Shown in pieces: positions 21,549 through 61,673 of a stretch of DNA of 64,000 nt. Location of the stretch: assembly GCF_000003815.2 (NCBI RefSeq), contig NC_049988.1, positions 16,860,088 to 16,924,087 on the forward strand. The letters run 5' to 3'. The number at the start of each line of letters is the position of its first letter. Position 1 is the first letter of the stretch. Position numbers and translations under genes: made by a program. The notes beneath the pieces were generated by a model. It was not told the DNA's origin. It saw nothing but the letters and a program-made list of their open reading frames with translations, and did no database searches. The DNA is from Branchiostoma floridae. Taxonomy: Eukaryota; Chordata; Leptocardii; Amphioxiformes; Branchiostomatidae.

Positions 21549-36381
<14,833 letters not shown>

Positions 36382-37427
36382 TTAAGGATGAATAGGGAAA
36401 CTGGGCTCGAAATACTGAGTGCATGTGAACCCAAAATTGGAGCTGTGCACCCAAATTTTTTCTATGGGTGCACCGGTGCACACAAATATTTTTTTAGGTT
36501 TACATATATACAGATATCAAAGCATTGTTAGTATCATCATTATAGTTTACACCATATTCTTGACATCTACATTGTAAGTGTTAGCAAGACAATAACTGTT
36601 CAAAGCAAAATACAAATATGCAATTGTGTCCATACAGGCTTTTCATTTGACAACATCTGCGCCATGTTGGATTACACCCTACGTTTGTAAACCACATGAA
36701 GATGCTACTGATTTATAATTATTCCGACATCAATGAAAGGCATGTATGCCTTCCTTACCTTCTGGGCCCAAAAACTGGCCTGTTGTGCAAAATGTTTCTG
36801 GTGCAAATTTTTATTTCGCTCAACATACATCAAACAACCTTGGCCTTGGCACTGATGGCAGGGTATAAACTAGTTTCACCACCAAGTTCGCTCCGGCCTA
36901 TGTTTATTCCAGGAACCTTGATAAAAATAGACCCTACGTCAGTTCACACGTACATACATAACGTCCAAGGCTAGTTTTCAATGGCAAGTCAACGAATCCA
37001 AACAACGTAAGATGTCCCAGAACGCATGTATTCGAAAAAAAAAAATGATCCTTCAAAATTAATCGGAGTTGTGATCGAGAAAATGTTAAATGGAAAAATC
37101 ACTGAGTGACACACTACACGCTTTAGATTTGTAAAAGAATCACAGTACGTTTCAGTCCTGGCTGTAATCACGTAGTAGAATTTTACGTCGCGATAAATTT
37201 GGTGAAAACAAAAAAAAAAGAAATGCCCCCCTCCCATGGATCCCACTCCTATGATGCGACGTAAGGCCAAGCTACGCAGTTGCAAATCGATTCTTTTGAA
37301 ATTAGAGATGGATTTCCTAGTTATCAGACCTCTAATGTTGACGTATTGGGTATTGTCTTGCACATAAAATACAATTTAAGCCACAAAATGACAAGGAAAA
37401 GGCGAGAACTCACAATATTTGGCTTAC

Positions 37428-37560
37428 CTCACTTCGAAGTGCGCCTGACTCGGCGTTTTGGGGTTAAAGGTCAAAGCTCTGACGTCAGGAGACCGCCACC
37501 AAACCATGCGACAAACTTTGTCTTATATACAAAATACTTGATGTCTTGTCAATACAACGT
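37428..37560 (-). promoter_or_regulatory. Putative CUL2 5'UTR exon and promoter with a CRE site
   Basis: On the minus strand a donor GTGAG|GTAAGCC at 37428/37427 would join to the acceptor TTTCCACAG before the ATG-bearing exon (36339). A perfect cAMP-response element, TGACGTCA, lies at 37480-37487. The region is less AT-rich than its surroundings. Inferred from signals only. Confidence 0.45.
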
Positions 37561-37790
37561 CGTAACGGCGCACAAGTCAACATTATAAATCAAATAATGA
37601 ATTTAAATTTTATCAAGGCAATAGTTGTGATTTGAGAATACGTTGTGCAGTAATTAGACACTCAACAACGTATCAATTTTGCCAGTGGATGCGCTTAAAT
37701 GACATACCATTTCACTTACTAACATTTATCTATTTATTGACAAAAACTAACATTATAATGTTGAAGGATATAATTACATAAAACTATATT

Positions 37791-37920
37791 TCACCTTTAC
37801 CCACGGGGGTAACCTATATCCATTGGTTTTAAAACAGGTACTAGTATTTAGGGATGTCATGTCGACGGAAGAATTGCTTTCAAATTGCAATATCTTATAT
37901 TATAATGTTGCAAGTTAAGA
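37791..37920. mobile_element. Partial MITE, TTCACCTTTATCCGCGG family
   Basis: TTTCACCTTTACCCACGGGG, CCTATATCCATTGGTTTT, then TTAGGGATGTCATGTCGACG; one arm only. Confidence 0.6.
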
Positions 37921-38028
37921 TCAAGGACCTGACTCAAGACACGATGGTTCATCGACTCAAGTAACGTAATAGAAACTTTTTTTGTTTGTACCTCCCACCC
38001 CAAATCAACTTCTCTATCAAGAAAATTA

Positions 38029-38440
38029 GTCTGCCTCTTGCAGAAAAAAAAAATCACCAACTCACGTACAAACTTTTTGATATCTCTATATCTCCAAGCC
38101 CGGATTAAAGTTCTTTCTCAATCTTTGTCAAGAAAAGTAGTTTATTAGCTAGTCTGCAACTTGCAGAAAAGCAACATTCATCCATTCACGTACAAACTTT
38201 TTTGATGTCTCCATACCTTCCATCCCAGATTCAGTTCTTTATAAGAAAAATAGTCTGCCACTTGCAAAAAAAAAAAAAAATCACCAACTCACGTCAAACT
38301 TTTTTGATGTCTCTAGACCTTCTATCCTAGATTCAGTTCTTTTTGAGAAACATAGTCTGCCACTTGCAGAAAAACAAAATTCATCCATTCACGTACAAAC
38401 TTTTTTGATGTCTCGACCTCCCAACCCAGATTCTGTCACG
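38029..38440. repeat. Four-copy tandem repeat, unit about 100-120 bp
   Basis: Units begin TAGTCTGCC/TAGTCTGCA near 38029, 38150, 38250 and 38354. Each contains TCACGTACAAACTTTTTTGA and a poly-A stretch. It stops about 50 bp before the kringle-gene TATA box. Confidence 0.8.
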
Positions 38441-38490
38441 TGCACACAAACAAAGTACACTACCGCGCCTACTGCCACGTCATCGTTCCA

Positions 38491-38498
38491 TATAAAAG
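38491..38498 (+). promoter_or_regulatory. TATA box of the kringle gene
   Basis: TATAAAAG, 113 bp upstream of the ATG at 38611, in a GC-richer stretch. Position and match are good for a core promoter. Confidence 0.6.
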
Positions 38499-38610
38499 CT
38501 AAAGTGGCCTTACTTCGTCAGACTAATTAAGGTCTCATATGCTATATTAACGTATTTTCCACTCTGTTATACACTGCGCCACTATTGTCTGTAAAACACG
38601 GTTAGCTAGA

Positions 38611-41600
38611 ATGACTGAGCAAACAGAGCGTGCCCGTATCCCTTTCTCCGGCCCGAGCGGCGGCCAAACCAGCGGGCCGCCGCCACAACCCCCTCCTGGC
38701 TACCGGAATGTCTCAAGCGGGCGTGTTCGCCATGGAAAACCTGGCGCTTCTGACAAGTCGCTAGAAGAGCAAGAGACGTCTACCGACATTTACGAAGAAG
38801 CCGAGGCGGTGAAACGTGACGCAATGTTCACTGCAGGTAACCGGCGCTTTTGTTACTAGCTTCCCTTCTTCAGTATTTTCAGTATTGATATATGTGTGTT
38901 TATTTGTAAAATTCAAAATTAGTTAGATATCAGGTTTTCGTTGTTTGTTTGATTAGTTTACATTTCAGTGATTAGCCAGCCTTGCAGAGAAATAAGATTT
39001 CAGTTACCGGCTCCACAAAGATTTCTTGTTCTTTTTAAATCTGTAAACTGAAATAAGTAAAGAAATTTGTATCAGAACGTTTTCAAGACGATATGGTACC
39101 CAGGTATATGGCGACCGCGACCTCAAAAAATTGGGACAGCACAGGACAAAATCCCTGCGCATAACGCCCGCGTCATTTTCAAATCTTGAGGTGTCATCGA
39201 TATTCCATGATAATTAGCACGATTTTGTGCGGAATTCGGCCAGTTTGCGTCGGATTTTCACTACCATTATACGATGTTATGTTCAAAATAAAGATGGCGG
39301 CGGATGCAAGTGCGTGTGCTTCAGCTGCTATTTGCCATTAAACACAACGGAAACCATTTATACCATGCATCGGGCATGTTGTGAGTCGATACTCTTCTAA
39401 CCGACCACCTGACCTAATCGACCTCTTTTGCCCGGTCCCTCGGGTGGTCATCTTGGACAGGTTTGACTGTATTTTTCAATTTATTAACGACTTGTTGAAT
39501 CGATAGATGGACACATTTAGATATATTAAAGTAGGGTCATGTCGATTGATTATATGGATAGCATCCAGGCGCGCACCATTTTTGTCCATTTCAAACAATA
39601 CTCTGAACATTTCGACCATACCATAGATCGTACAAAGCAGCTGTTAGACAAGCAAATACATGTCTTAGATTTTTTTTTAATATTGGAAAACGAATACTAA
39701 TTTCGTAGAACTGAAAAGTTAATTTAATAGTCTAGGAGGAAAATATGAAAGAACAAAATGACGAATCTATTGTTTGGTACACCATACTCTCATTTAGTCA
39801 TTTTATTTGTTCATTCCGGACCATTTCGATTAATTAAGGCACCCTTTCTCCAAACATTTTTCCGGAAGCTCCCATCAGTTTTAGGTTTCCCAGGGAATGT
39901 TGCTATCATCCATTTAATCGAATTGATTGGAAGACCTAAACTTGAATGAATCAATATCTCTACAGACACGTATCCGGTTGGAACAAGCGGCCGCCGTGGT
40001 TTCGGTAGCTTCATCCGTTCCCACCACAGCTGCATCGCGGCCGGCATTGCCGTGCTGCTTAGTCTCGTTGCTGTTGGACTCGCCCCTCTGACGATTATCA
40101 ATAAGAAGGTAAGACTATCTTGTACCAGAAATTGGTATTCTGACACCGTTTCTGTTGCCATTGTACACCCAAGGGTATCAAAGCTCTCGAGTAGACTATT
40201 CTGACGTACATGCATGTTCGTTTATATAGGAAATATCCCAACTGTCCACCACTGTCGACGCCTTGAAGCGCTGTCTTGACGACATGCCCCTCGCTTCTAA
40301 TACCTTGAAGCACGACCAAGACCACATGCCCACCGCTGTTGGCGCCTTGAAACGCGACCAAAGCAACATGTCCACCACTGTTGACGCCTTGAAGCGCGAC
40401 CAAGGCAACATGTCCACCACTGCTGACGCCTTGAAACGCGACCAAGACGACATGCGTCAACTGTCCACCGCTGTTGGCGCCTTGAAGCGTGACCAAGACG
40501 ACATGCGCCAACTGCCCACCGCTGTTGACGCCTTGAAGCGTGACCAAGACGACATGCGCCAACTGTCCACCGCTGTTGACGCCTTGAAACGCAACCAAGA
40601 CGGCATATCCGCCACCGTTAACGCCTTGAAGCGCGACCAAGACGACATTCGCCAACTGTCCACCGCTGTTGACGCCATGAAGCGCGACCAAGACGACATG
40701 CGCCAACTGTCTACCGCTGTTGACGCATTGAAACGCAACCAAGACGGCATATCCGCCACCGTTAACGCCTTGAAGCGCGACCAAGACGACATTCGCCAAC
40801 TGTCCACCGCTGTTGACGTCTTGAAGCGTGACCTGGACAAGGAGCGAAATGGAAGGACCGCTTTGGAGCGGCGTTTTCACGAAATGAGTAAAATGTTACG
40901 TAAGTTGAGTTCCTGTTGCTATGTGTACTATTAGTGATTGTGCAAATACATTGGTATGGCCATTTAATTACAAAAACAGAGGTATTATGTACCATTCATT
41001 ATTATATCATTTCCGTCATCGATATTGTACTTACACATATCTTTACATGCATAACTTTTATGTAAATGACTTACATATTTGCAGAATTTATGCACGATAC
41101 TGTTCACCTTCAACTAATTTAAACATGTCACATGCAGTCCCCATCATTTAGCATTAAGGTGTTTTGTCGTTTTGGTATTAGTTATGCAATAAGTTCCTCT
41201 GTTGCATGTTTGGTATCTGTATATGTTCCAGCTGCAATGATTTACATATGTTACATTCATTATAGTTCAGTTATGGAAAACAATGGAATGCATCATACGA
41301 TTTCCTCTTCAATTATTAGAATTAAGTCCCCCTTTTCATAATACATAAATAATTGTTTGCATGCAGACAGACAAACAGACAAACACTGCTGAAAATATAA
41401 TATCCATGATAAACTCCATTGAGGCAATGATTTTTTTTTAAACATTTTATTCTTCATTCACAATGATACAGTCAACAATACAATCAAGAGTGCAAGTAAC
41501 CATGGTAACAAACAATAACAGAAATAGATTACGTCAAAATACATATACATATAACGAGCTACATATATTATAGTTCACAATATGTCCCCTGACTTCAGTA

Positions 41601-43637
41601 CTACACTAGTTCTGTCTGAAGAAAGAAGTGGCGAACAGAGTCCTGCAGAAGATAGGCATCAAGTTCATGGTAACCAAAATGTTACCTAGTATCTCTTTAC
41701 AGTGAACGTTGGCACTAAAGAACTTACTTCCACTCCCATCATAAAATGCAACGAGTAAGTGCTTCACAAAGGGAGAACAAAAGTACTAAAAGGCAAGCAT
41801 CGAAATACAAAAAAGCGGATACATCTGCAACACAACAGTACCTGTTCTATTGTCAGCTTATGGGCAAGACAGCAACTACTCAAGATTTTGTTTTTCTTAT
41901 TCCATACCACATATGTTCAGAAAACATGGATATTTCAATTCATGTGCAACATTAACCTTAAGTCTGTCAAAAATGTTTGAAATATGTTGTTGTATAACTC
42001 TGTATCAGTATCTATATGTCTCAACCACTGTTTGAAAATAGAGAACTTTGCAATAGAGATTACTTTGTTAACAGAACTTATGTTACTGGTTCCAAGAAAT
42101 ATAAGAGGTTTTGTTATTGTAACATGTAAACCTTTTTGATGTAACACATTTTCGACATTTTTCCAAAATATTCCCAGCTTTCTACAATTTACAAACATAT
42201 GGACATAAGTGTCTTTTTCATTACATAGTGTGCATACAGGGCTGTATATTCCACCCAGTTTGTTTTTAATTTGCCACTTATTTAGCTTTACTCCACAGGG
42301 TAAAATGTTGTGTAGGAGTTTGAAATTAAGTTCTTTTAATTTGTTCCCTTCAATGTTAACAATTAAGTTTTTCCAAATTAACTTCTTATCTAAAATTGTA
42401 ACATCAAGTAGTTCAATCCACTCATCAATACATTTACTTTCTATAGCATTCTGTGATTTTATCTGGTTATAAAGAGTCCTAGAGTTGAGTTTGTCTAGGG
42501 GAACAAAATCAGTCTTCAGAATTCCAAGCTGATTTGGTTGGAAATCAACATCCGTATGTTGATCCCCAACCTGGCTCAACAGTGTTTTCCAATGCCCTGG
42601 TATAGCACCCCATACATTATTATGTTCAGCTAGGAAATTCCTTGTGTCATGTAATTTCAAAATTAAATCTTGTGCGTTTATAAATTTCCCTTGTATGAAA
42701 ACATCTCGAATATGTATGAGGTTACAATCAATCCAGTGTTTATAATACAAAGTTCTATTACCCAGTTTTATATACTGACTTCCCCAGATAACCTCATTCA
42801 TGATCTCTTTTGCTGTTTCTGGTACCTTCTTTACCCCTCCACCTGCTTGATGCCAGGCCAATATTATCTCTTTATAAAAGGTTGGCATAACCGGTGTTTT
42901 GGGGCAGTCCCCCTTCCTACAAAAGTTCATATTGAAAATCAAATTATCTTTTCCACACTTACTGAAATAGTATTTTGGGATAAGTTTCCATTGCACATTA
43001 GGTCCTTGGTTGAGTCTCTTTACCCAAAGGGCTAAGAAGCCCTGGTGTTGGGCTCTCAAATCAACCATATTTATCCCTCCATCGCTGTGGTCACTGATCA
43101 TACATTTTCTACTTATCTTATCTTTCTTTCCATTCCATATAAAGGTCCAACATTCCTTTTCTACAGTCTTAAGTACCCATTCTGGGGTGTCTATGTTCAT
43201 CAAATTGTATGTAATCAGAGATAATGCTAACTGTTTCACTACGGTTACTTTTCCATAGAGTGTTAGTTTTCTATTTTTCCATATTTTTCCATTGAGGCAA
43301 TGATACATAACGACGTCTACGCGTGCGATGCGGTAATTATACTTCTTCTTTTTTTTTCTTCAAATTTCATGTACCAGACTTATGCCAGGAGGGAGATGGG
43401 TCATCCTACCGAGGAACAGTCTCTGTGACCAAAACCGGCAAGACGTGTCAGCGCTGGAGCATGCTGGCACCCCATCTACACGGTTTCCAGGCTATTATGT
43501 ATCCGTCTGCCGGACTGAAGAGGAACTACTGCCGCAACCCGGACGTCTCTACCGGCGGATCCGGGGTTTGGTGCTACACCACGGATCGCAAGACGAGATG
43601 GGAGCGGTGTGACATACCGGTGTGTGGTACGCTCTGA
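38611..43637 (+). CDS. Type II membrane protein with repetitive coiled coil and C-terminal kringle domain
   Basis: Four exons in phase: 38611-38836, 39966-40108, 40230-40899, 43378-43637 (TGA), 432 residues. Residues 1-97 are a cytoplasmic region with a proline-rich patch (GPPPQPPPGY). A single hydrophobic span lies at 98-120, preceded by basic residues (GRRGFGSFIRSHH), which predicts a type II orientation. Residues 124-346 are a coiled coil built from tandem 14- and 17-residue units (ALKRDQDDMRQLS type). The last 86 residues are a complete kringle: six cysteines, including KTCQRW, NYCRNP, WCYTT and ERCDIPVC. Kringles bind proteins or lysine residues and are extracellular (family knowledge), fitting the topology. 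No protease domain follows. It may be an adhesion or pattern-recognition receptor; function unknown. The last intron contains a LINE and intron 1 a MITE. Confidence 0.88.
39380..39471. mobile_element. One-armed TACAGTCAAACCTG-family remnant
   Basis: Ends GGACAGGTTTGACTGTA at 39455-39471, preceded by GGTGGTCATCTT. The left end is not identified; it may reach back to about 39100 (GTATATGGCGACCGCGACC). Confidence 0.5.
39541..39927. mobile_element. MITE with roughly 27-bp TIRs (TTGATTTGATT family), copy 2
   Basis: Full-length relative of 15672-16038, in the first intron of the kringle gene and ending about 40 bp before its second exon. Both copies share CATACTCT, ATCGTACAAAGCAGC and AATGAATCTATTGTT-like internal sequence. 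Confidence 0.72.
40272..40830 (+). repeat. Coding minisatellite, 42- and 51-bp units
   Basis: At least a dozen units of GCCTTGAAGCGCGACCAAGA alternate between 42 bp and 51 bp, with a larger duplicated block (about 40580-40680 repeats at 40730-40830). All unit lengths are multiples of three, so length changes keep the frame. It encodes the coiled coil of the kringle protein. Open frames on the opposite strand are shadows. Confidence 0.9.
41431..43287 (-). mobile_element. 5'-truncated L1/Tx1-type LINE with 16-bp target duplication
   Basis: A minus-strand frame of about 450 codons (43287 to 41935) encodes the C-terminal part of a non-LTR reverse transcriptase protein: WKNRKLTLYGKVTVVKQ and CWTFIWNGKKDKISR, then a CTLCNEKDTYVHMFVNC zinc-binding-like motif, as in L1/Tx1 proteins. 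The frame is intact. A poly-A tail (plus-strand T run, 41431-41439) and identical 16-bp flanks (41415-41430 and 43288-43303) show target-primed insertion. The polymerase core and endonuclease are missing. It lies in the last intron of the kringle gene, antisense to it. Confidence 0.93.
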
Positions 43638-46482: not shown

Positions 46483-49400
46483 CTACAACCTACTACTAAA
46501 TAAAATGTTCTTGGCCTTCAGCTGGTGAAACACATCTTCTATGGCGTGTTCCACAGCACCCTGCTGGCTCTTTCTGTTCCCCGACTTGCCTGTCACCTTA
46601 CTGGCGATATCGTGGGCAGTGGCATTGTAGACCCATTTCCACCTGTAGAACCCACCATTATTGCAGTTGTAAGAGATGTTTCTTCCAGCTATGGTAACCT
46701 AGGGGTTTGGACAGACAGACAGACAGGAAAACATCAGATGACAAGACGCTATATACGTTGGTGATCAGAAGCAATAAGCTTGTTCCAGGTTTTAACTGCG
46801 CATGCACATTGTGGGTAATATTCAAACGCTGAAGGCCCGTGGGACTTAATCAATAATATAAGCACACCCGGATGTGGTAATAAGCATAGCATAGACAAGA
46901 GCTAATGTATTGTATCGCGGGAGTGAGAGCGTAGGGGTTCCAAAACTACGTAATAACTACAGTATTACCTGTCCACTGCTGCCGTAACTGGTACTTCTGA
47001 TGGTGTTGTATATCTCAGCTTCTGTAGCCAGCCTCTTCGCTTCTGCCTCTGCTGTTCGCCTTCTTTCCTCCTCTGCGGCTCTCGCTGCCTCCGCGCGCCT
47101 CTGAGCTTCAGCAGCTCTTTCAGCTGCCGCCCTGGCCTCTTCTTTCTGCCAATGGATAACCAGGTCATAGAGCAAGGTCACATACTAGGGGGCCAAAATC
47201 GTCCTTGACCTTCGTCCCCCTTAAGCCCCCTTCACACGAGAGCACGAATGAGCCGGAATGCCGTCCGAATGAATTTTTTTTCTATTCGTGGCAATTCCTC
47301 GCAATTCGTACTGTATTCTAAACATTCGTACTGCGTTCCAGATATTCGTCCCCGTTCTTTTGGCTGGCTCGAAAGTTTTTGACATGTCAAAAACTGTCGA
47401 GGTGCATTCGAAGTGTAGAAATATCGAATGGCATTCCAAATGGATTCTAATTGGATTCTAACTAGTCTAACTGCAGTCTGACCGCATTCTGTGGCATTCC
47501 AACATTATTCGAAACGTTTTTATCTCATTCGAAGGAGAACCGAAAAGGCAAGCCACTTCGAATCCTGCCCGAATGTGGCCAAAAGAATATCTCGAATGCA
47601 GTAAGAATTTCTAGAATACACTACGAATTCCCAGGAATAGAAAAGAATTTTCATTCTGACAGCATTCTGGCTCATTCTTTCTCGTATGAAGGGGATATCA
47701 AGTCCATTTGGAACCCCCGCTCGGAATGGCCCCGAATGTGGCACGAATTTTGCAAATACTTCATTCCGACTGGTTCGGCTTGATTCCTGCTAATTCGATT
47801 TCCATGTGAAGGCCCTTTAACACCAATTCACATACCAAGTACACTGTATCATTACAATCCATCAAGAGGCTGTTAAGTCATCCAGATCACAAATACCATA
47901 AACACAAACACACACACACACACGCGCGCGCAAGCGCGCACACACACACATATACGTGCACACACACACACACATACATACACACACACACGCACTAAAA
48001 TATGCCTACATTTTCATGGGGTGAATATGAATAGAAAAACTGTTATTTATTTACAGTGGGGCAAACATGAAACTGAATTATCATCTTCTATAAACTATGA
48101 CAAACAGAAAAACATCAGATGACAAGACGCTATATACGTTGGTGATCAGAAGCAATAAGCTTGTTCCAGGTTTGAATTGCGCATGCACATTGTGGGTAAT
48201 ATTCAAACGCTGAAGGCCCATGGGACTTAAGCACACCTGGATGTGGTAATACGCATAGCATAGACAAGACTTAATGTATTGTCTCGCAGAAGTGACAGCG
48301 TAGGGGTTCCAAAACTACGTAATAACTACAGTATTACCTGTCCACTGCTGCCGTAACTTCTGATGGTGCAGCTTTTGTAGCCAGCCTCTTCGCTTCTGAT
48401 GAGAATGCCAAGACAGCGACTGCGGCGAGGATGAGTGAGTGAGTGAGAGTGACTTCTGCCTCTGCTGTTCGCCTTCTTTCCTCCTCCGCCGCTCTCTCAG
48501 CCTCCGCGCGCCTCTGAGCTTCAGCGGCTCTTTCAGCTGCCGCCCTGGCCTCTTCTTTGTACCAATAGATAACCAGATCATAGAACAAAGTCACATCATG
48601 TGAGCCTTCGTCTTCCTAGCACCAATTCACATACCAAACACACATCATTAATCTTCATGCCAGAGCCTTTTCATACGCTATAACACATATAAGTCACAAG
48701 CCACACCTAATAATCGACATAGCCGCGTGATCGGCAAATTGTGCTGGAAAATGGGCTTCCCAAATAAGCGGATTTTACTGTACCTAGATATTTATCCTTA
48801 AGGTCGTCCGCAACAGTCTGTAAGTTTGCCTCAGACAGAGCACGCATCAGTGCTTCCATGGTGGCTCTCTCTCCACCTCGCTGATACCATTCCTCCAACA
48901 TGTCCATACAGCGGGACTTGTCATCCCTGTTTCTACCGTCAATGTTAGCGATGTCTGCCCCCACAAACCCAAGATGGAAGGCCAGGTCCTTCCAATCCGA
49001 GCTGACTTTTTCCTTGACGAAAAAGAAGTACTTGCGAACGTCTGCAAAGTGTTAAGAAACAAATTAATGATCATTATATGCATGTTATTCTTTCTTACAA
49101 AGATTAATGTCAAAGATTAATAATTCTATTATCAAGCACTTGTTGACTTCTGACATTTACTATAGAAACACATTTTTCCGCAACTGCTATGGCCTATTGT
49201 ACAGATATACACATTTTGTATAGATAGACGTTTTAATGTAGATGTATGTATGTGTGATCTTTTGTGTGTCTATGGGCTTTATACATGAAATAAAGAATAA
49301 ATAAGCATGGCCTCCTTCGGTCAATATTGACCATGGTAAAATCCTAATTGATATCAGCCCTACAGCGTCGGCTATGGCTAAACGGTCCTAGATATTGCGA

Positions 49401-52695: not shown

Positions 52696-55600
52696 TCAAA
52701 TGACCCCGTCTCCCCTCAGCCGTTTGAACAGGTGTTCGATCGCGTGCTCAGCTGCCCCCTGGCGACTCTCGCGTTTACCGGAGTTGTCGGACGTGCCGGT
52801 CCCGACGTCCCACGCTTCGCAGTAGAAGATCAGCTGCAGTGTGTTGAACTCGAACCTCATAGATGTGTTGTAGCGAATCCTTCTGTCCATTATGGTCACC
52901 TGTGGAGAAAAAAGTAGGGCAAACAAGGCAATAATAAATGGCAGACTTCACTTTGCACACACACACACACAAACACAAACGCGCGCGCGGACACACACAC
53001 AAACAAACAAACAAACAAGATGCGCGCGCACACACACTCGCACATGGACAAAAAGGCCGACACGCCAGAAGCAACATTGTACTTCACTTTCTTTGCCGGT
53101 GAAGAAGCAAACATGATATACACAATTGAAAGTCGACTTTAACTGTATAGAAAAAGTACCATGTACCCATTGACAACTTTTACTACAGTACGACTAATAC
53201 TAATGGTTTAGTTGAAATTGCTGAACATGAAGTTACATACTTCGCCAGTATCGCTGTAGCTGATGCTCCGGACCTGCTGTCTTATTTCTGCATCCGTCGG
53301 GCTGGTAGCGACTGCCGGTGCCGGTGTCTCCGACTGGTTACTGCCTGTGCAAGAACGCAAACCGTCATTTACTTCATAATGATACCATATCACTACATCA
53401 TGCAATGCAACCGCTGTGAGCATAGACCTCGAGTGTGATTATACGAAACTCTGAAGGCAACTAAACTGGGTATGATTTTGGAGACGGTCAGATGTTTCAG
53501 ATCGACAGCAACTGCCGTCACGGTGCCACTGAGGAAAGATAGCGGATGCTGTCTGAAACGTATGACCGTTTCCAAAATCATACCCTGTTGCCCGAGTAAC
53601 TATAATTTGGCGCACGTAATAGTTATACCAACTGACATATGAAATGCCGCAATAGAAAGGACAATTTTACTTCGGTTCTCGCTGGACACAGTGCTGGTGG
53701 CGACTTGCTGACGATCACGATTACCACTCCGTGATGCGTAACCAGCGTCGTCTCCTGTGCTGTTACAACCTGGAAAAAATATAACAGCCGCCATTAATTA
53801 CACATCATATACAAATATACAAGGTAAACAAATGCATAGCTTGCTGCTGTTGGCCGGGTAAACAAACAACTAACGTTACTGTACGCAAATTGCCTTTGTC
53901 AATATCAATGCCATTTTTTGACTTCTACAACATAAATGTGCTAGCTTGACTGCATGAAGGCATTACGTACCACCTAACATGTAGGTAACGTATACACTAT
54001 TGGATTATAAAGCATGCATACGAAAGTGAATACAATAGTCAGGTGATAGACAAAATGACGCTTATGTTACTTACAGCCGTCCACGCCACAGGCCTTAAGA
54101 AACTGCTCGTGGGATTTCTCCCAGTACTTCGACTCCCAGAGTCTGTCTTTGAGCCTTTGGGCAGCGTCGTGTTCCTTCTTTCCTTTCTCCAGGATCTTGA
54201 TGATCTTCTTAGCCAGCCTCTTCGCGTCTTCTTCATCGTTTCCCTCCATCTCGACGATGTTGCGGTCGAACTCGGGGTCCAGGTCCTTCTTGATGAACTC
54301 AGCCAGCCCGGACCTTTCGGAGATGATGACGGGAACACCGGCAGCGATAGCCTCCAGGCCGACAAGTCCGAACGGCTCGGCTCGGGACACCATGAGGACC
54401 ACGTGTGCCTGCTGGATGTCACGGCACAGATCCTCCTGCGTGCCGTACTCCAGGGGTGTGAAGTGGAAGGAGCCTGACCTGATGTTAGCATCGATGATCT
54501 CCTTGCTTCGTTGGAAGTCGTTCTTCCGTATCCCTTTGACTCGCCACTTTGCTCTTGGGAACCGCTGGATGACGTCAGGCATGGCGCTGGCGACAAGGTC
54601 GTAGCCTTTCAGCTTCTCCACGCCCTTGACCCTGCCGATGGACAGCACAACTTTCGTCTCCGTTTCCACGTACGTCCTCTTGGTGTTGAAGAAGATGTCT
54701 GACGGTTTAGGCAGGAACATGTAGTGCGGTTTTGACTCCCTCATCTCGTTCTGGTAGTAGTCATAGATGACAGGCCCCACCGAGAATATCGCATCAGCAT
54801 GTTCCATGTCATCTTGGATGGCTTTACGCTTGTCTCCGATCCCCATCGCCCGTTCGTCACTCTTGTAGTGCTCTGTATCTTCTGGTATCACGTGGCCGAA
54901 GAGAAAGAACTTCGCGTGTTGGAGGCGTTGTTCCTTGAGCGCTCTTGCGGCCTTGCTGGTGATATCTACATGGCCAATGATGTAGCCGATGTCTTCAGGA
55001 AGACTTGGATAACGACTTCGATGGTCATACGTGAGCCAGTCGAGAATGGGTTTCCTTTGATCGCCTTTTTGGACTTCGGGGAACAGCAGTTGAACGCCAT
55101 CGTCAACTCTTTCGTCTGGGTACAGCACTGTGTTGTACACCTTTACTTTTCTACTCCTCAAGGCGCGCGCCACCTGGCGGTTCATAGTAGACACGCCACC
55201 CTTCGCCGTGCCGTACTCGTCGTTGACCAAGAGAACCGCATGTTTGCCTACCAATTAAAACATGACGTATTAAGATTACTCCGTACTTGTATAGCATCTC
55301 TCTAACTTTCAAAGCTACAAGACAGAAACAACATGATTTGATGTTAACTGCTTGTATGTCCTGAAGCTATCGAAAAAGCATTATAACCTACCATGTTTTA
55401 AGTTGCCATCGGGAGTGTCCCCGTGTTGTGGAGATGTCGTGGTCACCTGCCCAGAGGATTGAACTGCAAAAGAAATGTGTAGATGCATCTTCGATTCATT
55501 TCTATCCTTTTCCATCCATTAATTGTAAGGGGTGAAAACAATGGTATTTCTACTCAGTGGTGACAATTATTCATATGCATTTTCCGCCTAAAAGAATTTA

Positions 55601-58600
55601 TGTTTAGCGTTTTGCTGTTGTTTTCGACATTGTCGATTCAATTGGATAGTAAACGAATTCTAGACAGTTTTTATTTTGTCAACTTACCATCCAGACTTGC
55701 ATAGTGGTTCTCGGCATAATGCCCCAGGAGCAGAGGAGGTTCTTTCGTGCCCACAGTCCCGGTACTTGGTGTCAGGATGGTGACGTAGTTCTCCGCCTCT
55801 ACACTGGACACGATGCTGACGTCATGACCAAACATGTCCGCCATGGCCTGTAGGACAATGTGGTCTCCCCACGTCCCATCACGTGACATGGTGCTCAGGT
55901 AACCTTCCCAGTTTTGATCTTGGACGAAGTCACTGAGATGGTCGCCGTTAAGCTGGAAATACGATTTGAAACATCAGCAACAGCCAACATGTTATTCCAT
56001 TTGTTTAAGGTCATATGTATATAGTTGATTTTTGTCTATAACGTTATTTGATGAATGGTATTCATCATAATGGTATATCAACGGAAAAATGAAGCCGAAG
56101 AGTGTGTACATTTCGTCACAAAAAAAAAACAAAAAACTTTTAAATCTTTCTATTCCTGGTAGTTAACCCACTAATGCCATGGTCCCATTTGCGCTAGTGC
56201 AATTTCCAGACCGTGTTTTGTCGGCGTCGGGCGTGGCGTATTACGGTAACTGGTAGAGCGTTCAGCTCGGAATCTATAGGTCATGAGTTCGATCCCCGCC
56301 GTGCCCCCGACGTTGTGCCCTTGGGAAAGGCACTTCACACGACCTTCCTCACTTCACCCAGGTGTAAAAATGGGTACCTGACTTCGGTCTGGGAGGTAAA
56401 ATTACCTTCTGTCTATACCATGTATGTGACACTGTTAATATAAGTTACAAAACTTGAGTGCAGTGCCACATCGTCCTCGTCTGTCCAAAAGCAAAATAGA
56501 AAAATTCCAGACCCTGCCGTGACGCAAAATAGCCCTGTAATCACAAGCCGTCCCGCGGGGCCACGTAGGGGGTCACACCCAAAAGTGCAGAAAACATCCC
56601 GAAAACTAAATGAAATGCTCACGTTGTATGGACAGCCTCTTAAGTAGTCAACAACTTGCTTGCGCAGATCCCCGTGGCTAATTTGTCTCCCCTCCGTACG
56701 GAACAGCTGATCAGCCACGGCGTGAAACATGCAGTTTCCGTCCTTCGGCACCTCATCCCGGAAGGTCAGCCCTGACTCCGCCACGTGCCTGGCCAGTCTG
56801 TTGTAGGTGTCAGGACGGGAGTCGTCTTCTACTCTTACCTCGGTCAGCAGGTGTTTCAGCGTCTCGAAGGCTTCTGAGGAAACAGACACTTGTAAGATAT
56901 TGTCCCTCCAAGACGCGAGAGGTTGGTGGGCAAGATTGTGACCTTCTTTTCTTATGCCCCGTTTCTTTGTCTGCTTGGCAGAAAACGGACATATGATAAG
57001 AAGGTCACAAACTTGCCTACGAGTCTCTGCTTGAAGAGTACATGTTCCTAGAAATGCTTAGAATTCATTTGACAATTAAATAGGGGAGTTTAAGACAATT
57101 ACATTACTGCGATATCCGGCATGGTCTTCTTATAATGGACAGGTCATCACGTCTGTATCGTGTTCAGTAGTCACACAAACACGCGCGCATATAATGTCCT
57201 ATGGGAAGTTTACCAGAAATATTGATAATGTCTTCTTTATTCCTACTCCTTTATTCCTTACTCCTAAGCATCCAAAGCATCCTTGTTGATAGCATCATGA
57301 AACCAACATAGCGACTGACAAAAAGCTAACAGTGTCTGCCTACTCCGTGCGTATCCTTGGATCTTGTCCGTGTGAAATCTTCCGTCAGTCTTCCAAGAGC
57401 TCCCCGCTCTGCTGTGGTCACCGCTATTCTCAGGCTGAAGAGTCATGTGTAGTCTTGGTGCTTTAGCTATGGCTGTGTCCACGTCTAGGTACAGTAGATT
57501 ATGAATATATATAAAGAGGTTTTTTTTTTATATGATGATAATATTTATTTGTAAAATCATACCCGAAGGCTAATTGCATGGTCATTCTCAAGAGCAAATA
57601 GTATCATAGATTATTATCTGTTATAGACTATAATAATAATTATAGATAATCGCTTGCACATTTAGAGGATTAACATATTACATGTTGTTTTTAACATGAT
57701 ATCATGATAGACTATAATTCAGCAGAAATATACCAATTTGCCATTTTTTGGGGGTATGATGCATCACAGATTCCTTTCTCAAGTCAGCTCCTCTTATGAC
57801 CTTGCAATACAACTCACCTTTCTCTCTTGCTCTTTTGGTCGCTTTGCTAAGTGCTGCAGTACGTCGTGATAACATCGAGAACAAAAGGACCAATGAATAA
57901 ACCAAAAAAAAGGGATTTTTATCAGCAAAGACGGCAGTAGATATAGAACACCAACATAGCATTGATATATTAAGATTTCCGTCAAATGGAAGTAAGAATT
58001 CATGAACTAAAATGTGCATTTTTCTTCAGTCCATGTTTAACGCATGAGCAGAAACCTGACACCAACACTATCAGTTACAAGGGCAGCCATATTTATTTAC
58101 GACATCGCTAAGTTGTGAACGTTTCAAAGTAGGCTTCGGCCATGATTTTCAGACATACATGTATGCTTTTGCACGCATATTTCTAGACCTAATGCCCCAG
58201 GAAGGGGTGTTAAAGTCAGTTTTTCATTGTACGACACAAGCCGTGCCTTCTGCTCCAACAAAAACGATCTATACTCGATTTTACTGGCCATTTTTAATCC
58301 CTCACCTTGTAATGCACAGTGGTTGCTTTCCCACTACTATAATCAATGAATGATGACAAACCTTTCGCTTCATCTTTAGCAATCTTCTCTGCCCTCTCAG
58401 CGAAGTCACGTCTGCCGATTTTTGTCAGCAGTCCTGCCAGAAGTGAGAGATCTCCTGGCTCCAACTTTCTTTCTTTTTCAAGTTGGGTAAAGATCTGGTG
58501 AGCGTCGGCTTTCTGGACGAATCTCGCTGGTAAGATCTCTGCACCGCTGACATAGTTACGGAGATCGGTAAGTTCTTCCTCTAACAGGTTTCGAGAAATC

Positions 58601-58635
58601 TTCAGGAAAAGATCTTGGCGAGGATTGTCTGCCAT
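52696..58635 (-). CDS. Gene B: DED - OTU deubiquitinase - GT-B glycosyltransferase - shared C-terminal module
   Basis: Core exons, all in phase: 58635-58362, 56873-56623, 55952-55688, 55463-55392, 55247-54075, 53769-53671, 53344-53241, 52899-52696 (TGA), 813 residues. Residues 5-88 are a death-effector-type domain (DLFLKISRNLLEEELTDLRN, LEPGDLSLLAGLLTKIGR). Residues 115-262 are an OTU cysteine protease with DGNCMFHAVADQL (Asp136, Cys139) and NHYASL (His258). Residues 288-677 are a GT4-like GT-B transferase with GTAKGGVSTMNRQVA, SIGRVKG and the EX7E motif EPFGLVGLE. Residues 730-813 are the module shared with A and C. A phase-compatible 36-nt exon (57853-57818) may add 12 residues after the DED. 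Start chosen by alignment to gene C; the frame is open upstream to 58779. OTU enzymes remove ubiquitin and GT4 enzymes use activated sugars; substrates are unknown. Confidence 0.87.
52955..53045. repeat. CA/CAAA microsatellite
   Basis: (CA)n, CGCGCGCG and (CAAA)n mix in the last intron of gene B. Confidence 0.9.
53462..53588. mobile_element. MITE of the GGTATGATTTTGGA(A/G)ACGG family
   Basis: GGGTATGATTTTGGAGACGG and CCGTTTCCAAAATCATACCC form long inverted arms, with GCTGTCTGAAACG inside. Relatives at 27248-27431 and about 62625-62705. In an intron of gene B. Confidence 0.75.
54075..55247 (-). CDS. Single-exon glycosyltransferase domain of gene B
   Basis: A 1173-bp exon (part of gene B) carries the entire GT-B fold, about 390 residues, without an intron; all other domains of the gene are split or short. 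The N-terminal half starts KHAVLLVNDEYG with the GGVS loop typical of GT4 donors/acceptors. The C-terminal half has TKVVLSIGRV, the EX7E motif and AAGVPVIISERSG. Acceptor TTGGTAG|GC and donor T|GTAAGT. Listed separately because its intron-free structure is notable. Confidence 0.88.
56214..56400 (+). mobile_element. tRNA-derived SINE
   Basis: A box ACTGGTAGAGCG and B box GAGTTCGATCCCCG at tRNA-like spacing are followed by a body TTGGGAAAGGCACTTCACAC and AGGTGTAAAAATGGGTACCT, common in deuterostome tRNA SINEs. In an intron of gene B. Confidence 0.8.
56901..57040. mobile_element. Foldback MITE, CTCCAAGCAGA family
   Basis: CTCCAAGACGCGAGAGGTTGG...ATTGTGACCTTCTT and the inverted AAGAAGGTCACAAACTTGCC...CTGCTTGAAGAG; a relative of 16408-16537. 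It begins about 30 bp upstream of the OTU exon in gene B. Confidence 0.75.
57264..57484 (-). CDS. Possible extra or alternative terminal exon of gene B
   Basis: An acceptor CTAG|AC at 57484, phase-compatible with the DED exon (G+AC), opens a 73-codon frame (DVDTAIAKAPRLHMTLQPEN...) ending at TAG 57264. As a terminal exon it would give a short DED-only isoform. A donor-like GTAGGC inside (CACGGA|GTAGGC) would also be phase-compatible with the OTU exon. No recognised domain. Low certainty. Confidence 0.3.
57818..57853 (-). CDS. Possible 36-nt microexon of gene B
   Basis: TACTGCAG|CACTTAGC at the 5' side and GAAAG|GTGAGTT at the 3' side. Phase 1 to phase 1, 12 residues (ALSKATKRAREK), symmetric, so inclusion would not change the downstream frame. 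The KRAREK sequence resembles the basic end of the DED exon in gene C (AKERKGQ). Confidence 0.45.
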
Positions 58636-58704: not shown

Positions 58705-60185
58705 AGTTACACCTGGATGGAGCGATGTCAGTTGGGAGGGGGCCATTTTGGTATGTAGTTTAGTATATTCTTTTTCCACTGTAACTTACGTTAAGTCGAC
58801 TTGACAGCATTGTGCAAGAAACAGCAAGAAATGCGTATTATGACGAAATGCAACACGTCTTTATAGAAATGTCAACGTAGAATAAGACGTACCCCTAGAA
58901 TGTCTTGGTCCGGTCCATTGTTACTCAAGTTACGGTCATGACAGAAAGGTAAATCAAGACAGGAGTTCAAAGGTTCCGTTGTAAACAAGACCATCTGCTG
59001 AGTGCGCTGGGCTTTTGTAAAAGTGTGCTTCATACGTTGTTAGTAGTTGTTATTGGTTGCCATACATTGTACCCTGTGCGATTGACCAAAAACTTCATTC
59101 ATTCATTCTTTCATATGTCCGCCGAAAACAAACAGGCGTGGAAGAAGTCAAAATAGCCTGTTTGGAGTGTAATGCAGAATGGCAGTATCATTATGCCCCT
59201 TTTCCTCCATAACCTACATTCTTCTACTTAGGAGCTACCTTCTTTTACTGAAGACGTTACACCAAGACACCGTGTTGTATCCAAATGAAAGACATATTTC
59301 TAGACATGTAAGTTATAAGCCATAAGACGCCACTTCTATAATGATGATTATAAAGGTCTTTATTGTAAATTCATGCCCTATAGGGCTTAGTTCAAATTAT
59401 ATAAGCTTATATTGCTTTCTTTACAATGTTTGTACATGAATACATCATGTTATATGCTTTAGTTCATAACCAGTTCATAATATTCTGCCAGACAGACGGT
59501 ATATAGTAGTCTCCAAGCAGACGCGTCAGCTGGATGAAAAAAGAGAATTATTTGGCCAAAAATAAAATGCCATGGGATTTCAGTTTTGCAGTCTTTTGCA
59601 GTCTATCCAGCTATCACGTCGGCCGGTCAGTTCACTCCTAGGCCAATTAACTCCTACTAGACTTTTGTTCTTACTTATAACTTGGCCAAAGTCCCATGTT
59701 GCTATATTCGGCTAGACCGGAGTCTGGTAGAGACTAGGTAAATAGTGAGAGAGGTTCGAAGGCAAAACAATCGCGTGATCTGCATGACGTCACTTTCGTT
59801 TCGGGAGGGTTACATCATGCAGGCACCTGCGTGATAGGGCGTGTATCATTATACAGAGCGCGAGACAGTTCATTGACTACTCCTGCCTTCAAAGAAGAAG
59901 TCAAACGTGACAATAGTATACATTGTTCATATAATTGATTAGACGCTTGCATAGTGTAACGTATTACTCCATTTTCTACTTTTAAACCCTTCGAGACTGT
60001 ACATGCAATTAGCCTTCGGGGATGATTTTGCAAAGATATTTTACCATATTCTGTATGGGTGTGTATGAATACCCATTTTCTATCAAAATACAACAACAAC
60101 AATAACAACAAATGGGTGGCAATGTGGTATTGTGTTTTCCCTAGCAGACCCTAGTGCTGTGTCCTTGGGAAACGCTGACAAGTCC
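58705..60185. other. Spacer between genes C and B
   Basis: No coding exon seen. Holds a MITE (59507-59736), a GCAATTAGCCTTCGGGGATG repeat (about 60005, also at 6630) and AT-rich sequence resembling a LINE tail at 59340-59400. Confidence 0.5.
59507..59736. mobile_element. MITE, TAGTCTCCAAGCAGA family
   Basis: TAGTCTCCAAGCAGACGCG at the left and GGTAGAGACTA at the right; near-full-length relative of 49634-49836. Confidence 0.75.
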
Positions 60186-61673
60186 TTAAATGACCCCGTC
60201 TCCCCTCAGCCGTTTGAACAGGCGTTCGATTGCGTGCTCAGCTGCCCCCTGGTGACTCTGGCGTTGACCGGAGTTTTCGGACGTGCCGCTGGCTTTGTCC
60301 AGAGCTTCGCAGTAGAACATCATCTGAAACAGGTTCAGCTGGAAGTGCTTGTTGGTGTCGTAGCAAATCCATCTGCCCATTATTTGAACCTGTGGAAACG
60401 AACGGTGGGAAACTGTTAGACAATCCACCCCCTTCTTATGACAGAAACACACAGAAAGCATTTCCTTCTGTACATGTGTGGCACTGTTAAAATGAGCTAT
60501 GCTCGAGCGCAGTGCCAGTTTGTCTTTGCTTGCACTGTCTTAAAGTAAAAAGAAGAAGAAACAACACGCAATAGACTACATAAAAAGAAGAACATTTTTC
60601 CGTGAACTAACAAACATGCTGAAGGTACTTGAAAGCCGACTTCAATGATATAAGAATATATCAAATAATAATGGACTATACTACCACGTAACCATCGTGA
60701 AATACCACTAGTAGTATATGTTGTGTTGCTTAAAAATTTCCGAACAGGATTTTGCACATATACTAACCTGGCCACCATCGCCGTAGCTGATAGAGCGGAC
60801 TTTCTGTCTTATTTCTGCATCAGTCGGACTGGTATAGGCTGCTGGTGCCGCTGCCTCCGATTGGCTGTTGGCAGGGCTATCTGCATATTCTAAAGATAAA
60901 TTTTCATTGGTTAGTATACGCGTGTTTAAGAGTGTGTTGTGAAAGTTATGATCCTCGTGTATAATTATAATGGAATGAATACAAGAAGTATTCTTCTATT
61001 AGTGGCCTCAGGTTATAAATAGAAAATATTGGCGCAGTACCTATCTAACAAAGAATTGTACATTTGTATCATACCCATATAGGGTAGCCTCCATAGCAAG
61101 CTTCTTGGGCTTTTTTTCCTTATGGTACACTTTTGCTGGCCAGTTAAGTTTTACTGGGTCGTAAGGGCCGGTAGCACAAGCAACGCAGTACAAAAAAGAA
61201 ATGGCAGGCAAAAATGTATTATGGCCCCCAAGGAACGAAAAAAAAGGCACAGGGAGCCTGCTTAGAGGCTACATATGGGCATCAAATCATGTCTGTACTT
61301 TGTAGATTAAGCCAAGAGAAAGCGAAGATAATTGTCTCGTTCTGTGGTTTGATTGCATGCCTTCGTGTGTGATTTTTAACACATTTAACTTACCTTGTCC
61401 TTTCCGCTCCTTTGCCGCAATTCTCTCCGCCTCCTCTGCGTACTCCGTCCGTCCGATCTTCCTCATGAGCTCGGCTAACAGTGACAGGTCTCCTGGCTTC
61501 ATTTTACCGTCATTCTGCAGTTTGTTGAATATCTGGTGAGGGTTCGCGTGCTGAATCCGACCCGACGGCAGAAGTTTGCGACCTCCGACATAATTCCGGA
61601 GGTCCCTGACTTCATCGTCTTCAAGGTTTTGAGAGATTTCGAGAAAAAGATCGTGTCGAGAAGGCTCAGACAT
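60186..61673 (-). CDS. Gene C: DED - linker - shared C-terminal module
   Basis: Three exons in phase: 61673-61394, 60889-60768, 60389-60186 (TAA), 201 residues. Residues 1-90 are a death-effector-type domain (RHDLFLEISQNLEDDEVRDL, MKPGDLSLLAELMRKIGR), closely related to gene B's. A short Ser/Ala/Pro linker (94-117) leads to the shared module at 118-201, the same length as in gene B and ending in the same FKRLRGDGVI. It lacks the OTU and GT parts. It may act as a regulator or decoy of gene B, or an adaptor, in the way short DED proteins regulate caspase-8 complexes (analogy only). An upstream in-frame ATG at 61715 would add a basic KKKK stretch; 61673 is preferred by alignment to gene B. Confidence 0.87.

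What the first reader, a model, noticed from the sequence alone, without database searches (positions are those of the whole stretch)
52696..58635. A single gene joining a death-effector domain, an OTU deubiquitinase and a bacterial-style GT4 glycosyltransferase
Gene B strings together a DED (residues 5-88), an OTU domain with intact DGNC and NHY motifs, and a full GT-B transferase with the EX7E motif. Each domain is well known alone, but I know of no described protein with this order. It would place ubiquitin removal and sugar transfer on a death-fold scaffold, a possible new immune or cell-death effector type.
Basis: partly seen in the sequence, partly recalled or inferred. Interest (0 to 1): 0.92.

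Follow-up and report, generated by a model that had tools for sequence, protein, structure and literature searches.

The report
Amphioxus-type DED–deubiquitinase–glycosyltransferase immune gene
In what looks like an amphioxus genome, one gene very probably joins a cell-death docking domain, a ubiquitin-removing enzyme and a sugar-adding enzyme of bacterial defence type, and related genes carry the same enzyme pair behind different sensor parts, which suggests that the animal builds immune proteins by swapping a ready-made two-enzyme module.

Summary
Confirmed at domain level; very likely one gene, unproven without RNA. On the minus strand five exons (58635-54067) join in frame into 680 aa: DED (Pfam 38.3 bits, close to cut-off), OTU (64.5) and GT4-conflict (236.4), with OTU DGNC/NHY and GT4 EX7E intact. 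The GT is PF20706, known from bacterial and invertebrate conflict systems (Kaur 2021). Not found in print in my searches: OTU-GT4 as a recurrent cassette (7 loci, 4 chromosomes) behind LRR-Roc-COR, ankyrin or DED front ends, and a second array gene ordered DED-OTU-pseudocaspase. All 10 related OTU first exons fetched have a phase-1 acceptor at the homologous place and the 9 array DED exons fetched offer a phase-1 donor near the DED end, so exon shuffling explains the join. Against: the window's DED donor there is weak, and 3 of 7 other array DEDs lead to Death exons, only one to OTU. Inferred mechanism: the DED docks on DED assemblies (ASC/FADD/caspase) and brings deubiquitination and glycosylation there. 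New variant of a known kind.

The parts
58362..58635 (-). Exon 1: ATG and DED (aa 1-91)
   Evidence: Pfam DED 40.3 bits for the exon ORF; conserved blocks with most paralogs stop at or just past this donor, 58356-58363; donor AAAG|gtttgt phase 1, weak, 4.88
58306..58306 (-). Alternative strong phase-0 donor (TACAAG|gtgagg), score 10.91
   Evidence: with acceptor 56970 it also joins DED to OTU in frame, 731 aa
56623..56873 (-). Exon 2: OTU N-half with Cys motif DGNC; phase 1 in, phase 0 out
   Evidence: OTU 30 bits; phase-1 acceptor at the homologous place in 10 of 10 copies
55688..55952 (-). Exon 3: OTU C-half with NHY; phase 0 in, phase 1 out
   Evidence: OTU 34.6 bits; splice sites
55392..55463 (-). 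Exon 4: 24-codon linker, phase 1-1
   Evidence: the same linker lies before GT4 in a paralog (L051)
54067..55247 (-). Exon 5: GT4-conflict glycosyltransferase, ends TAA
   Evidence: PF20706 238.7 bits; AlphaFold pLDDT 86.5; Foldseek BshA/MshA/PimA
58846..58975 (-). Stretch upstream of the DED exon conserved with 5' flanks of two paralog DED exons (possible promoter or 5' UTR)
   Evidence: blastn: 80% over 86 columns with C10b, 69% over 130 with L047
61394..61673 (-). Second DED exon, probably the start of a neighbouring gene
   Evidence: DED 35.3 bits, just under cut-off; phase-1 donor at 61394
52696..52899 (-). Array-specific exon-like stretch (67 aa, own stop) 3' of the GT4 stop; not part of the DED-OTU-GT4 protein in my model
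   Evidence: 3 copies in the genome search, all in the C10 array; frame conserved

Best explanation
A single gene encodes an approximately 680-aa protein DED-OTU-GT4. It arose when a DED first exon of the local array (phase-1 donor) was joined to a pre-existing OTU-GT4 cassette whose first exon has a phase-1 acceptor; elsewhere the cassette sits behind LRR-Roc-COR or ankyrin modules. Mechanism (inferred): the DED enters DED assemblies of the ASC/FADD/caspase type; the OTU trims ubiquitin from the clustered signalling proteins; the GT4 enzyme transfers a nucleotide-sugar onto a client there (signalling protein or invader molecule). It would thus change or end the signal from a death-fold platform. 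Shown: domains, motifs, splice-phase compatibility, purifying selection, recurrence of the cassette. Inferred: one transcript, recruitment, both activities, substrates.
For: Joined frame and domain scores. 10 of 10 fetched OTU-N exons on 4 chromosomes have a phase-1 acceptor 119-131 nt before the DGNC codon (3 of the 10 also show other candidate AGs). All 9 DED exons fetched in the array, the window's two included, offer a phase-1 donor near the DED end (7, 2; 8 of 9 also show other donors scoring 3 or more). The L047 Death exon (249 nt) and the window's two-exon OTU module (516 nt) are both phase 1-1, hence exchangeable after a DED. Two in-frame DED-OTU routes exist, 680 and 731 aa; the two mixed routes hit stops. 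Conservation with paralogs is essentially confined to the exons plus a DED-type upstream stretch. No Roc, COR or ankyrin match in the window; the Roc and COR queries did find a sister unit as control. At L047 the order is DED, OTU, caspase exons. OTU-GT4 at 7 loci. dN/dS. DED nearest FADD and caspase-8 by sequence and FADD DED filaments by fold. B. belcheri Caspase-1/2, a cloned DED-DD-caspase, binds ASC through its DED (PMC3196919, passages).
Against: No transcript evidence. The conserved-position DED donor in the window is weak (4.88, against 7.9-9.6 in 5 of the 7 other-locus DED exons; the two in L120 are weak too, 4.1-4.7 and 5.3; rough consensus matrix from recall). Five AATAAA/ATTAAA motifs lie between DED and OTU and none in the 1.17 kb after the GT4 stop. 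Of the 7 array DEDs fetched outside the window, 3 are followed by Death exons, 1 by OTU, 1 lies at the end of the fetched stretch and 2 (L120) show no Death or OTU match behind them. Two Roc-COR-OTU units show no DED directly before them. DED score is only 2-4 bits above cut-off and its single-sequence model has no Foldseek match under E 0.001. Nothing tests binding or catalysis.
Confidence: 0.62

Rival explanations
1. Two neighbouring genes: a DED gene (DED alone, or DED spliced to the 52.7-kb terminal exon) and a truncated OTU-GT4 gene that lost its Roc-COR front end.
For: Strong phase-0 donor at 58306 and an exon-like stretch at 52899-52696 whose acceptor is also phase 0; polyA-like motifs between DED and OTU; array DEDs go more often with Death exons (3 of 7) than with OTU (1 of 7) outside the window.
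Against: OTU-N is an internal exon with a conserved acceptor, and I recognised no first exon of its own; OTU and GT4 stay under purifying selection; L047 also has DED followed by OTU; the 58306 donor too joins OTU in frame through acceptor 56970.
Confidence: 0.22
2. A non-functional chimera left by recombination in an unstable array.
For: The array is rich in duplicates, with reverse-transcriptase-like ORFs inside one OTU (L056) and a sister GT4 copy that lost its glycine motif.
Against: All five exons are open, catalytic motifs intact, dN/dS 0.20-0.35 for OTU and GT4 pairs with the window.
Confidence: 0.1
3. The gene is a regulator or decoy of sister LRR-Roc-COR-OTU-GT4 receptors, acting through its OTU-GT4 half rather than through DED platforms.
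For: The same OTU-GT4 cassette is the C-terminal part of Roco-type loci.
Against: The DED is conserved and FADD-like.
Confidence: 0.12

Closest known systems
GT4-conflict glycosyltransferases (PF20706; Kaur et al. 2021, eLife, PMC8195603)
   Same: The window GT scores 238.7 bits over 383 of 385 positions; 21 bacterial relatives are 25-31% identical. Of 8 bacterial proteins scanned, 4 carry partners over cut-off (AAA_22 in 2, TPR in 2, NB-ARC, VMAP-M0, CATRA-N), 1 only sub-threshold EAD1 and YukD-like matches, 3 none; such partners are described in the paper
   Different: An OTU sits directly before the GT4 and a DED before that; 'OTU' has 0 occurrences in the paper's main text (figures and source data not seen)
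Prokaryotic LRR-AP-GTPase-COR-GT4 conflict proteins (same paper, section 15)
   Same: Sister loci on C8 and C14 read LRR-Roc-COR-OTU-GT4
   Different: Extra OTU; the window gene has a DED in place of LRR-Roc-COR
Amphioxus Caspase-1/2 (DED-DD-caspase, PMC3196919, passages)
   Same: DED first exon; one array locus (C10b 27904-33010) has the order DED-Death-caspase
   Different: Death and caspase replaced by OTU and GT4; the two array caspases examined lack the catalytic motif letters
OTUD5/DUBA and OTUD1 deubiquitinases
   Same: OTU core matches 3tmo, E 3.8e-11, and 4bop, E 9e-7
   Different: Embedded between a DED and a glycosyltransferase
Coral NACHT/NB-ARC proteins with glycosyl transferase group 1 domain (PMC4083563, passages)
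   Same: Immune-type protein with a group 1 glycosyltransferase domain
   Different: NTPase receptors; no OTU mentioned in the passages read

Membership tests
Death effector domain (PF01335) | Profile score over the curated cut-off | tested here: met
   40.3 / 38.3 against 35.9
Death effector domain (PF01335) | Six-helix death fold | tested here: met
   Single-sequence AlphaFold model, six helices (one of 4 residues), pLDDT 76; best Foldseek match FADD DED filament, prob 1.00 but E 0.043
Death effector domain (PF01335) | Homotypic binding or filament formation | not testable with these tools
   needs a bench assay
OTU deubiquitinase (PF02338) | Profile score over cut-off and Cys/His motifs | tested here: met
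   64.5 bits; DGNC and NHY present
OTU deubiquitinase (PF02338) | Ubiquitin hydrolysis | not testable with these tools
   needs a bench assay
GT4-conflict (PF20706) | Profile score over cut-off, full length | tested here: met
   238.7 against 26, positions 1-383/385
GT4-conflict (PF20706) | GT-B fold and EX7E | tested here: met
   AlphaFold pTM 0.88; BshA, MshA, PimA among the top 5 Foldseek rows; EPFGLVGLE
GT4-conflict (PF20706) | Placement in a conflict or immune system | tested here: inconclusive
   Context (death-fold array, Roco sisters) fits; function untested
Roco / AP-GTPase conflict protein | Roc GTPase and COR domains | tested here: not met
   No Roc or COR match in the window with queries that do find a sister unit (the Roc query was insensitive); sister loci have them
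Single-gene DED-OTU-GT4 | One transcript | not testable with these tools
   only splice-phase and comparative evidence

The most novel reading that the evidence does not exclude
OTU-GT4 is a portable two-enzyme effector cassette that this animal plugs, through phase-1 introns, behind interchangeable front ends (LRR-Roc-COR GTPase sensor, ankyrin repeats, DED), the animal counterpart of the swappable effectors of prokaryotic AP-GTPase conflict proteins; the DED form is a second-tier component recruited to the same death-fold platforms as its array neighbours.
Probability: 0.35. Interest if true: 0.78.

Novelty: new variant of a known kind. Interest (0 to 1): 0.62.

Why it matters
It would put ubiquitin removal and protein or metabolite glycosylation on one DED scaffold, giving a testable case in which a bacterial-type conflict enzyme works inside an animal death-fold signalling platform. 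It also shows exchangeable, phase-matched exons producing immune architectures in one array, and the Roco sisters link animal immunity to bacterial LRR-GTPase-GT4 systems.

Tried and rejected
Considered and rejected: (1) GT4 as bacterial contamination: it lies on a 23.9-Mb contig among introned genes, and the genome has 57 scored matches; 24 rows of this genome separate from 8 bacterial rows at 100/100 (unrooted). (2) The 52.7-kb stretch as last exon of this protein: the GT4 frame stops at 54067, and the donor-like site over that stop (exon end 54075, phase 1, score 6.2) does not match the phase 0 of that exon. (3) RNA gene: no Rfam match over gathering score in 46-64 kb. (4) Defence-system models: 0 PADLOC matches for the GT4 and for the C14 LRR-Roc-COR ORF. 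(5) A single origin of the OTU-GT4 pair within the GT4 tree: OTU-bearing GT4s (6 rows; the C4 copy was not in the tree) lie among GT4s for which no OTU was found in 1.5 kb of flank, so gain, loss or exchange probably happened more than once; the tool's OTU-against-bacteria count of one change does not speak to this, because rows without a label were not counted. (6) Death-GT4 fusions: Death pieces upstream of GT4 at L030 and L044 are below Pfam cut-off (19.2 and 20.3 against 22.6), no match at the L042 piece scanned; left as 'Death-like'. Splice scores use a small consensus matrix written from recall, so they rank sites only. Results that do not fit the cassette picture: C14 1.947 Mb has Roc-COR before GT4 without an OTU match in the 3.2 kb fetched, and C14 2.006 Mb shows no Roc, COR or OTU match in 3.1 kb; one Roc-COR-OTU unit (C10b 36649-41007) has no GT4 match before the next DED. 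No wider taxon test was possible (no other animal genomes held). A listed paper holding 'amphioxus' and 'OTU domain' (PMC7644770, on A20, listing only) was not read.

Full report
WHERE IT IS. The window is C10:16860088-16924087 of a 513,431,437-base assembly in 431 contigs. In the tables the contigs numbered up to C19 carry multi-megabase coordinates and the higher-numbered ones seen are small; with the size and the mass of DED, Death and caspase genes this points to amphioxus (Branchiostoma, probably B. floridae).

THE OBSERVATION. Four minus-strand ORFs carry the domains: DED 40.3 bits, OTU in two exons (30.0 and 34.6), GT4-conflict 238.7. A five-exon model (58635-58362, 56873-56623, 55952-55688, 55463-55392, 55247-54067) is 2043 nt, open, and ends in TAA. 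On the joined 680 aa Pfam gives DED 8-85, OTU 135-255 (64.5 bits, near the sum of the halves), GT4-conflict 293-668. Catalytic motifs are present.

ONE GENE OR TWO. For one gene: OTU-N exons have a phase-1 acceptor at the homologous place in 10 of 10 fetched copies (six on C10, two on C14, one each on C8 and C4). All 9 array DED exons fetched offer a phase-1 donor near the DED end: window DED1 4.88, window DED2 12.59, five others 7.9-9.6, the two in L120 only 4.1-4.7 and 5.3. Two in-frame joins exist in the window, 58362/56873 (680 aa) and 58306/56970 (731 aa); the two mixed joins reach stops at codons 116 and 145. Blast conservation with paralogs covers the exons and a stretch upstream of the DED ATG, not the region between DED and OTU apart from one 51-bp match. 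The window holds no Roc, COR or ankyrin match at E 0.01, with queries that do find a sister Roc-COR unit (the Roc query, from C14, was insensitive and missed the C10 Roc exons). Against: the window donor is weak; polyA-like motifs occur between DED and OTU (5) and none in 1.17 kb after the GT4 stop; of 7 array DEDs fetched outside the window 3 lead to Death exons, 1 to OTU, 1 is at the edge of the fetched stretch and 2 show neither. No RNA was available. I put one gene at about 0.75.

THE FAMILY. GT4-conflict matches: 57 scored of 102 first-look candidates. OTU directly upstream of GT4 occurs at 7 loci found: the window; C10 17.02 and 17.03 Mb; C14 1.97 and 2.90 Mb; C8 12.56 Mb; C4 22.41 Mb. 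Front ends: LRR-Roc-COR at C14 2.90 (Pfam) and C8 (LRR and Roc by Pfam; COR by tblastn); Roc-COR at C10 17.03; COR seen at C14 1.97 (flank incomplete); ankyrin exons 2.5-3.4 kb upstream of the OTU at C4; DED in the window; unresolved at C10 17.02. Of the 30 GT4 loci with 1.5-kb flanks, 3 have OTU. OTU with another follower: L047 has DED, OTU, caspase exons in order. There the DED with its 5' flank is 82% identical over 621 bp to the DED-Death-caspase locus, the caspase part 91% over 907 bp to the same locus, and the OTU part 79% over 824 bp to a Roc-COR-OTU unit: a chimera with OTU where the Death exon would be. The L047 Death exon (249 nt) and the window OTU module (251+265 nt) are both phase 1-1, which would explain the exchange. 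One Roc-COR-OTU unit has no GT4 match before the next DED, and one C14 locus has Roc-COR-GT4 with no OTU match, so the cassette is not strictly kept.

SELECTION AND STRUCTURE. Window OTU against four array copies: dN/dS 0.20, 0.26, 0.28, 0.28; GT4 against two copies 0.35 and 0.21. GT4 model: pLDDT 86.5, pTM 0.88 from 22 sequences, the other 21 bacterial; best Foldseek matches BshA with UDP/GlcNAc (E 4e-15), MshA, PimA, retaining GT-B enzymes using UDP- or GDP-sugars (enzyme class partly recalled). The nearest PDB sequences are OTUD5 for OTU and caspase-8/FADD for DED (E 0.002); the DED model is single-sequence and its Foldseek E-values are weak (best 0.043, probability 1.00). In a 32-row tree the window GT4 groups with the two C10 copies at 100/100.

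HOW IT PROBABLY WORKS. In B. belcheri, Caspase-1/2 (DED-DD-caspase) interacts with ASC through the DED and with FADD2 through the DD (PMC3196919, passages read). One array locus (C10b 27904-33010) has that order, and the DEDs of the five paralog exons compared are 72-82% identical to the window's first DED, except L047's second at 63%. By inference the window DED competes for or joins such DED assemblies and brings OTU and GT4 with it: OTU removes ubiquitin from clustered partners, GT4 adds a sugar to a client. Kaur 2021 proposes that GT4 domains modify invader molecules or block invader-host contacts (section 15 read). Which client is used is unknown; I favour signalling proteins of the platform or invader proteins caught there, at about 0.35 for this mechanism as a whole.

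KNOWN AND NEW. Known: GT4-conflict enzymes in bacterial conflict systems and invertebrate immune-like proteins, the prokaryotic LRR-AP-GTPase-COR-GT4 layout (PMC8195603, section 15 and passages), coral NACHT-glycosyl transferase proteins (PMC4083563, passages), DED shuffling in amphioxus (PMC2575513 passages: 0 'OTU', 0 'glycosyl' as whole words; PMC3196919), and Death and DED among domains enriched in dispensable amphioxus genes (PMC12373286 passages). Not found in the searched library (open-licence papers; listings, of which searches were shown only in part): an OTU-GT4 pair, DED-OTU, or LRR-Roc-COR-OTU-GT4. Figures and supplements of PMC8195603 were not seen and may show some of these. Verdict: new variant of a known kind, interest 0.62.

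Noticed in passing
L047:7896-8478 (C10:16991896-16992478) and C10b 32415-32995 (C10:17038914-17039494): Caspase exons read SNG and QASGG or QATVGG where active caspases have SHG and QACxG (SHG recalled; QACQG and QSCRG in PMC3196919): FLIP-like pseudocaspases, one of them downstream of DED-OTU.
   Followed up: partly
window 52696-52899(-), 60186-60389(-), L123 3688-3902 (C10:16961187-16961401): Frame-conserved exon-like stretch of 67 aa with its own stop in two of three copies; the genome search found 3 copies, all in this array; no Pfam match over cut-off. Possible terminal exon of DED genes.
   Followed up: partly
L052:2947-9501 (C14) and L057 with L041 (C8): LRR-Roc-COR-OTU-GT4 loci, an animal parallel to prokaryotic LRR-AP-GTPase-COR-GT4 proteins with an added OTU.
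   Followed up: partly
L054:54-1259 (C10:17022554-17023759): GT4 copy behind OTU that lost conserved letters (VIDAYENANVGVPT where the window has VNDEYGTAKGGVST): likely inactive enzyme.
   Followed up: no
L056:1850-7884 (C10:16963349-16969383): OTU N and C exons about 5.5 kb apart with reverse-transcriptase-like ORFs between them, followed by a Roc-like exon at 8527 (by eye, no family search).
   Followed up: no
L119:2339-6763 (C4:22406838-22411262): Ankyrin exons upstream of OTU-GT4, another front end for the cassette.
   Followed up: partly
window 48710-49051(-): Death domain exon, 55.8 bits, 3' of the DED-OTU-GT4 gene; its gene was not resolved.
   Followed up: no
L053:2450-4571 (C10:17012950-17015071): ZU5-like and Death-like exons (below Pfam cut-offs) behind DED-Death, an UNC5/PIDD-like layout (comparison recalled).
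   Followed up: no
window 41938-43359(-): Reverse-transcriptase remnant (zf-RVT, 22.4 bits, under cut-off).
   Followed up: no
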